In this document: positions 16,680 through 19,648 of the stretch, piece after piece
Numbering within the stretch: the stretch's first letter is position 1
Layout: every line of letters begins with the position of its first letter
Source of the DNA: Aquificota bacterium
GTDB lineage: Bacteria > Aquificota > Aquificia > Aquificales > QOAS01
DNA: 34,082 bases
Assembly: GCA_013154305.1 (NCBI GenBank)
Contig: JAADCT010000061.1
Location: forward strand, 1 to 34,082
Direction: 5' to 3'
Notes under the pieces: generated by a model
Told to the model about the DNA's origin: nothing
Database searches by the model: none
Seen by the model: the letters and a program-made list of their open reading frames with translations, nothing else
Position numbers and translations under genes: made by a program

Positions 16680-16695
16680 TTAACAAAATTGTTAA
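16680..16695. promoter_or_regulatory. Perfect 16-bp palindrome, candidate operator
   Basis: TTAACAAAATTGTTAA (TTAACAA-AA-TTGTTAA) in the divergent intergenic region between the CoA-binding protein and the NtrC-like regulator. Confidence 0.55.
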
Positions 16696-16743: not shown

Positions 16744-18303
16744 ATGGTTAAAAAGCGGCTCCGCCTCAAGACGGAGGAATTGCGAATTATTAACGAAGTT
16801 TTGAAGGGAATTTTAAAGCACAGAAGCCTTGAAAAGCTTTTGGACTTCGTTTTAAAGACTTTTTACAGCCTTTGGAACGTCGAGCACAGCTTTATAGCGC
16901 TCTACGACCCGAAAATCGGCGAACTGAGGGTAAAGAGCGCCTTCGGCTTTTTACCCAAGGAGGTCGAAAGGGCCATATACTCCAAAGGTGAGGGAATTAC
17001 CGGGCAGACCTACAAGCTCGGCATTCCGCTCTTTGCGACCGAGGACGAGCTTTTGAACAAAACGGGACTGTTGGAAAGGATACCCTACAGGGACTTCGGA
17101 TTTTTTACGGCGCCGATAAAGGCGGGTTCGGAGGTCGTCGGCGTCGTCGGCCTTTTTAAGGACCTGCGGCTGGGTCCCACCTCGGTGGAAAAAACGCTGG
17201 AGATTCTGTCGGTCATCGGCTCGATTTTGGGAACCTTCCTCTACCTTCAAAAGGAGTTCGAAAAGGAGAAGAAACTGCTGGAGGAGAGGGGCGGTTCCTC
17301 CCTCCTGAGGGAAAAGGAAATAGCCAAGTACGGGCTCATCGGCGTTTCGGAGGCTCTGGAGCGGTTAAAGAACCTGCTCAAGCAGCTGGAGGGGACCGAC
17401 GTCAACCTCCTCATAAAGGGAAAGGACGGGGTGGGGAAAACCCTGGTGGCGAAGGTGGTTCACCTGACCTCCCAAAGGAGGGACAAACCCCTCCAGGTTT
17501 TGGACCTCAGAAACACCCCCCGGAATTTGGTCGAAATTGAGCTCTTCGGTTTTGAGGGAAACCGCTACCAACCCTTCAAGCCGGGACTTTTGGAGCTGGC
17601 CGACGGCGGCACGCTGATAATAAAGCACGTGGAACTTCTCCCCGTTGAGGTTCAGAGGAAACTCCTCGACTTTTTGAGGACCAAGACGGCCCGCCGCGTC
17701 GGCAGCGAGGAGGACCGAAAGTTTAACGTCCGAATTTTGGCGACCACCTCCGACGACCTCCTCGAAAGGGTCCGCCGCGGCTCCTTTCTGAGGGAGCTCT
17801 ACGACCAGCTGTCTCTCGTAACGGTGGAGGTTCCCTCCCTCGCCGAACGGCGCGAGGACGTTCCCCTTTTGGTAAACCACTTTTTGAAAAAGTACGGAAC
17901 CCGCTACGGTAAGGCGGTTTCGGCCGACGAGGAGCTAGTCCGCTTCCTGACTCTGGCCGAGCTCAAGGAAAACGTTAAGGAGCTCGACCGCCTCATCCAC
18001 CGTCTCGTTTTGCTGTCGCCCTCGGGAAAAAAGCTTACGGTGGAGGACCTCCGTCTGGTCGCGCCCTACCTCTTTGAGGGGAAGGAGGTCTTTACGCCGC
18101 CGGCGCCCCTTTCGGACCTGCCCCTTCCCAAAAAAATAGAGGAGGAGGAAAAGCAAAAGATTGTCTGGGCTTTGGAAAAGACCAACTTCGTAAAGTCGAG
18201 GGCGGCAAAGCTTTTGGGCTACACCCTCCGCCAGCTCGACTACCGAATAAAAAAGTATGGAATAGAGGTTCCTAAGCGCAAAAAGGGCGGCCCGTCCTCT
18301 TAA
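16744..18303 (+). CDS. GAF-AAA+-Fis NtrC/NifA-family regulator with a degenerate ATPase domain
   Basis: GAF-like N-terminus; LLIKGKDGVGKTLVAKVVH (Walker A); IELFGFEGNRYQPFKPGLLELADGGTLIIKHVELLP aligns to the sigma54-interaction domain but lacks GAFTGA and Walker B DE; C-terminal Fis HTH KSRAAKLLGYTLRQLDYRIKKYGI. Confidence 0.85.
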   Translation: MVKKRLRLKTEELRIINEVLKGILKHRSLEKLLDFVLKTFYSLWNVEHSFIALYDPKIGELRVKSAFGFLPKEVERAIYSKGEGITGQTYKLGIPLFATEDELLNKTGLLERIPYRDFGFFTAPIKAGSEVVGVVGLFKDLRLGPTSVEKTLEILSVIGSILGTFLYLQKEFEKEKKLLEERGGSSLLREKEIAKYGLIGVSEALERLKNLLKQLEGTDVNLLIKGKDGVGKTLVAKVVHLTSQRRDKPLQVLDLRNTPRNLVEIELFGFEGNRYQPFKPGLLELADGGTLIIKHVELLPVEVQRKLLDFLRTKTARRVGSEEDRKFNVRILATTSDDLLERVRRGSFLRELYDQLSLVTVEVPSLAERREDVPLLVNHFLKKYGTRYGKAVSADEELVRFLTLAELKENVKELDRLIHRLVLLSPSGKKLTVEDLRLVAPYLFEGKEVFTPPAPLSDLPLPKKIEEEEKQKIVWALEKTNFVKSRAAKLLGYTLRQLDYRIKKYGIEVPKRKKGGPSS

Positions 18304-18322: not shown

Positions 18323-19648
18323 ATGTTTGAACTGCTTACCGGTCGAATAAAAAACGCCGTCGACAAGCTTACCGGGGCAAAGAGGCTTTCGGAAAAGCAG
18401 GTAAACAAGGCCCTTCGGGAAATCCGGTTGGCGCTGTTGGAGGCCGACGTTGAGCCGTCGGTCGTAAAAAACTTCGTAAAGCGCCTCCGCGAAAAAACGC
18501 TTAACCGCGAGGTAATAAAAGGCCTAAATCCCGGCGAAACGGTTTTGAAAATCGTATACGACGAACTGGTCGACATTTTGGGAAAAAATCCGCCCGAGCT
18601 CAAAAAGGGCGTCGTGCTCTTTGTGGGTCTTCAAGGAACGGGTAAAACGACCACCATCGGAAAAGTCGCCAACTGGTTGAAGAAGCAGGGCAAAAAGGTG
18701 GCCGTCGCCTCCACCGACGTGAGGCGGCCGGCGGCCATGCTCCAGCTCAAAAAACTGGCCGAGAGCGTCGGCGTCGACTACTACGAATTTGAGGGGGAAA
18801 CCGACCCCGTAAAGATTGCAAAAAGGGCCGTCGAAAGGGCAAAAGAGGAGGGCGTCGACTACCTCCTGCTCGACACCGCCGGCCGGCTCCACGTGGACGA
18901 GGAACTTATGGAGGAACTTCAAAGGGTCAAGGAGGCGGTCCGCCCCTCGGAGGTTATCTACGTGGCCGACGCCATGCAGGGTCAGGAGGCCCTGCCGGTC
19001 CTTAAGGAGTTTCACGAAAAACTGGGGCTGACCGGCGTGGTTTTGACCAAAATGGACGGCGACGCCCGGGGCGGCTTGGCCCTTTCGGTGAAAGAGAGCG
19101 TGGGCGTTCCGATAAAGTTCGTCGGCGTGGGCGAAAAGCTCGAGGACATCGAACCCTTCTATCCCGACCGAATGGCCCAAAGGATTCTGGGTTTGGGTGA
19201 CCTCCAAACCCTGGTCGAAAAGGCCAAAAGCGCCATTCCCGAGGACGAGGCCGAAGCCCTCGCCCTAAAGGTTTTGCAGGGCGACTTTACGCTCGAGGAC
19301 CTCAAAAAACAGCTCGAGTTTACCCTCAAAATGGGACCGCTGGACAAGATACTGAAGATGGTGCCCGGACTGGGGGCCTACGCCGACAAGATAAAGGTGG
19401 ACGAGAAACTGATAAAGCGGAAGATAGCCATTATCAACTCGATGACGCCCGAGGAGCGGAGAAATCCCAACATCATAAACCTGTCGAGAAAGCAGCGGAT
19501 TGCCCGCGGTAGCGGAACCACCGTTTCGGACGTCAACCGCCTCCTCAAGGAGTACAGGGAAATGAAAAAACTCCTGAAAAGGTTTAAAATAAACAACTTC
19601 GGGGCGAAAAAGGGAAGGTTTCCCTTCCGCTTCCCCTTCCCCTTTTAG
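18323..19648 (+). CDS. ffh: Signal recognition particle protein Ffh
   Basis: VGLQGTGKTTTIGKVANWL...DVRRPAAMLQL...LLDTAGRLHVDEELM...LTKMDGDARGG...M domain NSMTPEERRNPNIINLSRKQRIARGSGTTVSDVNRLLKEY. Confidence 0.97.
   Translation: MFELLTGRIKNAVDKLTGAKRLSEKQVNKALREIRLALLEADVEPSVVKNFVKRLREKTLNREVIKGLNPGETVLKIVYDELVDILGKNPPELKKGVVLFVGLQGTGKTTTIGKVANWLKKQGKKVAVASTDVRRPAAMLQLKKLAESVGVDYYEFEGETDPVKIAKRAVERAKEEGVDYLLLDTAGRLHVDEELMEELQRVKEAVRPSEVIYVADAMQGQEALPVLKEFHEKLGLTGVVLTKMDGDARGGLALSVKESVGVPIKFVGVGEKLEDIEPFYPDRMAQRILGLGDLQTLVEKAKSAIPEDEAEALALKVLQGDFTLEDLKKQLEFTLKMGPLDKILKMVPGLGAYADKIKVDEKLIKRKIAIINSMTPEERRNPNIINLSRKQRIARGSGTTVSDVNRLLKEYREMKKLLKRFKINNFGAKKGRFPFRFPFPF

What the first reader, a model, noticed from the sequence alone, without database searches (positions are those of the whole stretch)
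16744..18303. NifA/NtrC-type regulator that appears to have lost sigma54 activation and ATP hydrolysis
Seen: GAF-AAA+-Fis layout with Walker A retained (GKDGVGKT). Canonical ELFGHEKGAFTGA is replaced by ELFGFEGNRYQP (17539-17574). Canonical Walker B TLFLDEI is replaced by TLIIKHV (17614-17631), losing both acidic residues. The FREDLYYRL segment is FLRELYDQL (17779-17811), so positions equivalent to PspF R162 and R168 become L and Q. Established: GAFTGA contacts sigma54, Walker B Asp drives hydrolysis, and the two Arg act in trans. Some family members (TyrR, HupR) lack GAFTGA, but losing all three signatures while keeping GAF and Fis domains is unusual. Inference: a sigma54-independent, nucleotide-sensing DNA-binding regulator.
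Basis: partly seen in the sequence, partly recalled or inferred. Interest (0 to 1): 0.72.

Follow-up and report, generated by a model that had tools for sequence, protein, structure and literature searches.

The report
Sigma54 nitrogen regulator surviving without sigma54
A group of small-genome Aquificota bacteria has lost the sigma54 transcription system, yet kept the regulator that used to drive it: its motor has decayed, but its sensor, its DNA-binding domain and its binding sites in front of the nitrogen-uptake genes are preserved, so it has probably become an ordinary nitrogen switch.

Summary
The GAF-AAA+-Fis protein lacks GAFTGA, both Walker B acids, both Arg fingers and the sensor II Arg. 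All 7 genomes of its genus keep the gene with the same losses, and none has rpoN (0/7; 34/34 in sister families). Sister family f2 has an intact orthologue, Aquifex Nlh2, with the same recognition helix. The gene is not decaying: dN/dS 0.03 in the DNA-binding domain, 0.04-0.08 in GAF, 0.16-0.18 in AAA+. A palindrome upstream (16680-16695) recurs before glnA, amtB and porin-glnB: 16 of 22 such promoters in the genus match within one mismatch (0.02 expected; 0/81 control windows). In f2 the same site lies 95.5 bp from the -12 element before glnB-glnA-amtB. In the sigma54-less genus no -24/-12 element remains, and the glnA operator sits at about -64 or -54 from a putative sigma70 start. Best reading: a nitrogen regulator converted from sigma54 motor to sigma70-type factor. 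GAFTGA-less relatives are known; this traceable rewiring with complete catalytic loss is a new variant. Sign of regulation, ligand and ATP binding are untested.

The parts
16680..16695 (.). Palindromic operator TTAACAAAATTGTTAA, 64 to 49 bases before the ATG of the regulator gene
   Evidence: same site before glnA, amtB-1, amtB-2, porin-glnB and cobA-molybdoenzyme in the same genome
16744..18303 (+). Nlh2-type GAF-AAA+-Fis regulator without sigma54-activation and ATPase motifs (519 aa)
16801..17253 (+). GAF sensor domain (residues about 20-170), strongly constrained in the genus (dN/dS 0.04-0.08)
   Evidence: (4g3v, Aquifex Nlh2 GAF, E 2e-26)
17332..18078 (+). AAA+ domain and lid (residues about 197-445): fold kept, catalytic residues lost
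   Evidence: 1ny6_A, rmsd 1.5 over 244 columns
17419..17442 (+). Walker A GKDGVGKT, retained
17539..17586 (+). Remnant of loop L1 (ELFGFEGNRYQPFKPG) in place of GAFTGA; deleted outright in G001-G004
17605..17634 (+). Degenerate Walker B GGTLIIKHVE (Asp-Glu replaced by Lys-His)
17785..17811 (+). Degenerate Arg-finger segment FLRELYDQL (PspF R162 and R168 positions are Leu and Gln)
17971..17985 (+). Degenerate sensor II NVKEL (GNVREL in intact relatives)
18136..18258 (+). Fis-type DNA-binding domain; HTH identical over 26 residues to Aquifex Nlh2 (2m8g)

Best explanation
The protein is the orthologue of Aquifex Nlh2, which in the sister family is the likely sigma54 enhancer-binding protein of the glnB-glnA-amtB operon. 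In the ancestor of this genus rpoN was lost. The regulator then lost the parts needed only for sigma54 remodelling (L1/GAFTGA loop, Walker B, Arg fingers, sensor II) and kept its GAF sensor, AAA+ scaffold and DNA-binding domain. It binds TTWACAAWWTTGTWAA as a dimer in front of glnA, amtB, porin-glnB and, in most of the genus, its own gene, and so keeps nitrogen assimilation under one regulator. Shown by comparison: motif losses, rpoN absence, operator conservation, linkage to nitrogen genes, absence of -24/-12 elements. Inferred: that this protein is the binder (strong); that it activates sigma70-type promoters by direct contact at about -64/-54 at glnA rather than represses (moderate, about 60:30); that GAF binds a nitrogen or carbon signal such as 2-oxoglutarate (weak); that ATP is bound but not hydrolysed (weak to moderate).
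For: rpoN (PF04552) in 0/7 genus genomes, 34/34 others. Same motif losses in all 7 orthologues, one clade nested in the f2 Nlh2 clade, support 100/100. HTH identical to Nlh2 2m8g. Operator: own genome 8 places within one mismatch against 0 for the reversed control; 6 of 8 lie before self, glnA, amtB-1, amtB-2, porin-glnB and cobA-molybdoenzyme. Genus: 16/22 nitrogen promoters within one mismatch, shuffles mean 0.017, control windows 0/81. In f2 the site lies 95.5 bp from the -12 G before the glnB-glnA-amtB genes in nine genomes, where sigma54 promoters need an enhancer-binding protein. f2 genome G021 lacks the Nlh2 orthologue and its glnB promoter has no such site. No -24/-12 in genus promoters; glnA operator centre at -63.5/-64.5 in G001-G004 and -54.5 in G000 from a conserved TGATATAGT (G004 counted by eye from the same element). 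Constraint inverted: AAA+ identity 0.76 in f2 but 0.45 in the genus, GAF 0.54 and 0.66.
Against: No binding or expression data. Operator position is uniform only at glnA; at amtB-2 it lies 20-75 bases before the ATG, where it could repress. The self operator is eroded in G001 (core deleted) and G003. G005 glnA lacks the conserved -10. Two of 22 nitrogen promoters (amtB in L289 and L293) have no good full site.
Confidence: 0.77

Rival explanations
1. Same protein and same operator, but it now acts mainly as a repressor (like TyrR at some promoters), releasing nitrogen genes when the GAF signal changes.
For: Operators near the start codon at amtB-2 (-65 and -20 in G000; -65 and -29 in G002) and at its own gene. 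TyrR and other GAFTGA-less relatives are sigma70-dependent (PMC3162934).
Against: At glnA the operator is centred at -64 in four genomes and one helical turn closer (-54.5) in the fifth, with an extended -10 and mostly poor -35: an activator layout.
Confidence: 0.28
2. The palindrome belongs to another transcription factor; the degenerate protein does something else.
For: Binding was not measured; two extra sites lie near glmS and a Roadblock gene.
Against: In f2 the same site is the upstream element of sigma54 promoters, which must bind an enhancer-binding protein. Only two such proteins are found in each genus genome; in the own genome the other (C26) has a different DNA-binding domain and no operator at its gene. 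The operator precedes this gene in most of the genus, and is missing from the glnB promoter in G021 where the orthologue is missing.
Confidence: 0.08
3. A decaying relic: loss of rpoN left the gene without function.
For: Catalytic motifs gone; AAA+ dN/dS is about 5 times that of the DNA-binding domain.
Against: Intact ORF in 7/7 genomes, overall dN/dS 0.09-0.11, DNA-binding domain 0.03, operators conserved.
Confidence: 0.02
4. sigma54 is present but missed (incomplete assemblies), and the protein works with a hidden motif or as a modifier of an intact partner.
For: The seven genomes are 88-95% complete and only one rpoN domain model was searched.
Against: Absent in 7/7 while found in 34/34 relatives with the same model; the second enhancer-binding protein of the own genome also lost GAFTGA and Walker B; no -24/-12 at nitrogen promoters.
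Confidence: 0.02

Closest known systems
Aquifex aeolicus Nlh2 (NifA-like homologue 2; PDB 4g3v GAF, 2m8g DNA-binding domain)
   Same: Orthologous: same domain order, nested in its clade, 26/26 identical HTH residues; same palindrome before nitrogen genes as in the Nlh2-bearing family f2.
   Different: Nlh2 orthologues keep GAFTGA, DE, Arg fingers and sensor II and live with rpoN; Nlh2 is reported to stimulate sigma54 transcription (review PMC9866876). Here all of that is lost.
Rhodobacter capsulatus NtrC and Caulobacter NtrC
   Same: Nitrogen regulators descended from enhancer-binding proteins, L1/GAFTGA deleted, act at sigma70 promoters (as reported in PMC10274813).
   Different: They carry a phosphorylated receiver instead of GAF; Caulobacter NtrC needs its Walker A and B residues and R. 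capsulatus NtrC needs ATP binding. Here Walker B and Arg fingers are gone.
TyrR, DhaR, HupR, VpsR
   Same: Enhancer-binding protein descendants that lost GAFTGA and became sigma54-independent (PMC3162934).
   Different: Other sensors and regulons; their hosts generally keep rpoN (own knowledge).
Fusobacterium nucleatum and Jannaschia proteins in genomes without rpoN
   Same: Enhancer-binding-like proteins retained without sigma54; sigma70 dependency suggested (PMC3162934).
   Different: Single substitution in GAFTGA reported; no regulon or operator tracing across the loss.

Membership tests
sigma54 enhancer-binding protein (functional) | Sensor-AAA+-Fis layout with PF00158 | tested here: met
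sigma54 enhancer-binding protein (functional) | GAFTGA loop | tested here: not met
sigma54 enhancer-binding protein (functional) | Walker B DE, Arg fingers, sensor II Arg | tested here: not met
sigma54 enhancer-binding protein (functional) | Walker A lysine | tested here: met
sigma54 enhancer-binding protein (functional) | rpoN in the genome and -24/-12 at target promoters | tested here: not met
Nlh2 orthologue group | Phylogenetic nesting and same DNA-binding domain | tested here: met
Nlh2 orthologue group | Shared candidate binding site before nitrogen genes | tested here: met
GAFTGA-less sigma70-acting regulators (R. capsulatus NtrC kind) | Deletion in L1 with DNA-binding domain retained | tested here: met
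GAFTGA-less sigma70-acting regulators (R. capsulatus NtrC kind) | Acts on sigma70 promoters | not testable with these tools
   only promoter geometry available
NifA (TIGR01817 equivalog) | Score above curated cut-off | tested here: not met
   228.6 bits against 528.85

The most novel reading that the evidence does not exclude
A sigma54 nitrogen regulon moved to the housekeeping sigma factor: the enhancer-binding protein kept its sensor, sites and targets but changed from a distal ATP-driven remodeller (site about 108 bp upstream of the start) to a proximal contact activator (about 54-64 bp), with its AAA+ ring reduced to a non-hydrolysing oligomerisation or signal-relay scaffold.
Probability: 0.5. 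Interest if true: 0.75.

Novelty: new variant of a known kind. Interest (0 to 1): 0.62.

Why it matters
Sigma54 promoters are inert without an ATP-driven activator, so losing rpoN should silence the regulon. Here is a natural before-and-after comparison, within one order, of how a regulon survives: the operator is kept, moved nearer the start, and the activator is stripped of its motor. It makes testable whether an enhancer-binding protein can become an ordinary activator and what the AAA+ fold does without hydrolysis.

Tried and rejected
Whole-genome operator counts at two mismatches in the AT-richer members of the genus are barely above the reversed-pattern control, so genus-wide counting is uninformative; only targeted promoter tests work there. 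The neighbourhood of the gene is not conserved beyond ffh in G000-G004. The NifA site (TGT-N10-ACA) was considered, but the site found has a different layout. Family f3 glnB promoters have no such site; f3 proteins have a different recognition helix. Relic and missed-rpoN readings rejected. The structure model (pLDDT 82.5, pTM 0.50) only shows that the AAA+ fold is compatible; its alignment included intact relatives. Papers on the Nlh2 structures were not held, so a published Nlh2 binding site could not be checked.

Full report
Observation. The ORF at 16744-18303 encodes 519 aa with GAF, AAA+ (Sigma54_activat), lid and Fis-type HTH domains. The AlphaFold2 model keeps the AAA+ fold (1ny6_A, rmsd 1.5 over 244 columns), although the alignment included intact relatives.

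The losses belong to a genus, not to one gene. All six other genomes of the genus held here have an orthologue (45-75% identity over the alignment) with the same losses; in four of them the whole L1 loop is deleted, and Walker B reads VVKSFH, LIKRIE or LIRRVE. They form one clade with full support, nested inside the orthologues of family f2, which have every motif intact. The recognition helix is identical over 26 residues to Aquifex aeolicus Nlh2 (2m8g), and the GAF domain's best solved stand-alone relative is Nlh2 (4g3v).

rpoN is gone. The sigma54 DNA-binding domain (PF04552) is found in none of the 7 genomes of the genus and in all 34 genomes of the two sister families. The only other enhancer-binding-type protein in the own genome, a response regulator on C26 close to NtrC1, has also lost GAFTGA and the Walker B acids. 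The two losses fit one cause.

The protein is under selection, but of a different kind. Between close pairs in the genus dN/dS is 0.03 in the DNA-binding domain, 0.04-0.08 in GAF and 0.16-0.18 in AAA+. Among f2 orthologues AAA+ is better conserved than GAF (0.76 against 0.54 identity); in the genus the order is reversed (0.45 against 0.66) while the Fis domain stays at about 0.8 in both.

Operator. Comparing the regions upstream of the seven genes showed a palindrome, TTWACAAWWTTGTWAA: perfect in the window (16680-16695), within one mismatch in five of seven, eroded in G003 and with its core deleted in G001. A search of the own genome with this pattern, defined from the regulator promoters only, gave 8 places within one mismatch against 0 for the reversed pattern, and 12 against 1 within two. 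Six of the 8 lie upstream of the regulator itself, glnA, amtB-1, amtB-2, a porin-glnB operon, and cobA plus a molybdoenzyme that resembles assimilatory nitrate reductase or formate dehydrogenase (the molybdoenzyme is below every curated cut-off). Across the genus 16 of 22 promoters of glnA, amtB and porin-glnB hold the site within one mismatch; dinucleotide shuffles give 0.017 on average and 81 other upstream windows give none, even at two mismatches.

The site is older than the loss of sigma54. In f2, perfect sites occur in 12 genomes; of 12 such places examined, 11 lie upstream of glnB/glnA(-amtB), the twelfth upstream of a transporter cluster. At nine loci the distance from the centre of the site to the G of the -12 element is exactly 95.5 bp. 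G021, an f2 genome that keeps rpoN but has no Nlh2 orthologue, has no site at its glnB promoter, whose -24/-12 has decayed to TTGGCACGTTTTTTACA. Since sigma54 promoters need an enhancer-binding protein (established knowledge), and since this protein's DNA-binding domain is the one shared between f2 and the genus, it is by far the likeliest binder.

Likely mechanism. In the genus no -24/-12 element is found upstream of the nitrogen genes. At glnA a conserved TGATATAGT (extended -10) follows the operator in G000-G004; the operator centre then lies at -63.5 to -64.5 in G001-G004 and at -54.5 in G000, one helical turn closer. In f2 the same site would be near -108. This is the geometry of a contact activator rather than of a looping enhancer. 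Other promoters are less uniform, and amtB-2 sites close to the start codon would also suit repression. That GAF senses nitrogen or carbon status is inference.

Comparison. Loss of GAFTGA with a switch to sigma70 is known for TyrR, DhaR and HupR and proposed for VpsR (PMC3162934), and for nitrogen regulation in R. capsulatus and Caulobacter NtrC (PMC10274813); those NtrC proteins depend on ATP binding or on both Walker motifs. Enhancer-binding-like proteins in genomes without rpoN were noted before. I found no report on this genus or on a regulon traced across the loss of sigma54 (open-access papers only). I therefore file it as a new variant of a known kind: it works like a GAFTGA-less regulator, descends from Nlh2, and is not a functional sigma54 activator.

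Noticed in passing
L154:9410-10753 (G000:C26): Second enhancer-binding-type protein, an NtrC1/NtrX-like response regulator, also lost GAFTGA and Walker B acids but keeps its receiver domain; its targets are unknown.
   Followed up: partly
L294 (G021:C5:109500-111500): An f2 genome with rpoN but without the Nlh2 orthologue and amtB has no operator at glnB and a decayed -24/-12 element.
   Followed up: partly
L176:3248 and L172:8941: One-mismatch copies of the operator about 100 bp upstream of glmS (inside the end of a feoB-like gene) and upstream of a Roadblock/LC7 gene; may be chance or further targets.
   Followed up: no
window 18323-19648: ffh follows the regulator gene by 20 bases, and also in G001-G004 but not G005 or G006; possible read-through into a housekeeping gene.
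   Followed up: no
L170:2443-3510: A BBP2-type porin (PF07642) precedes glnB in the genus under the same operator; a similar-looking secreted protein gene also follows amtB in f2.
   Followed up: partly
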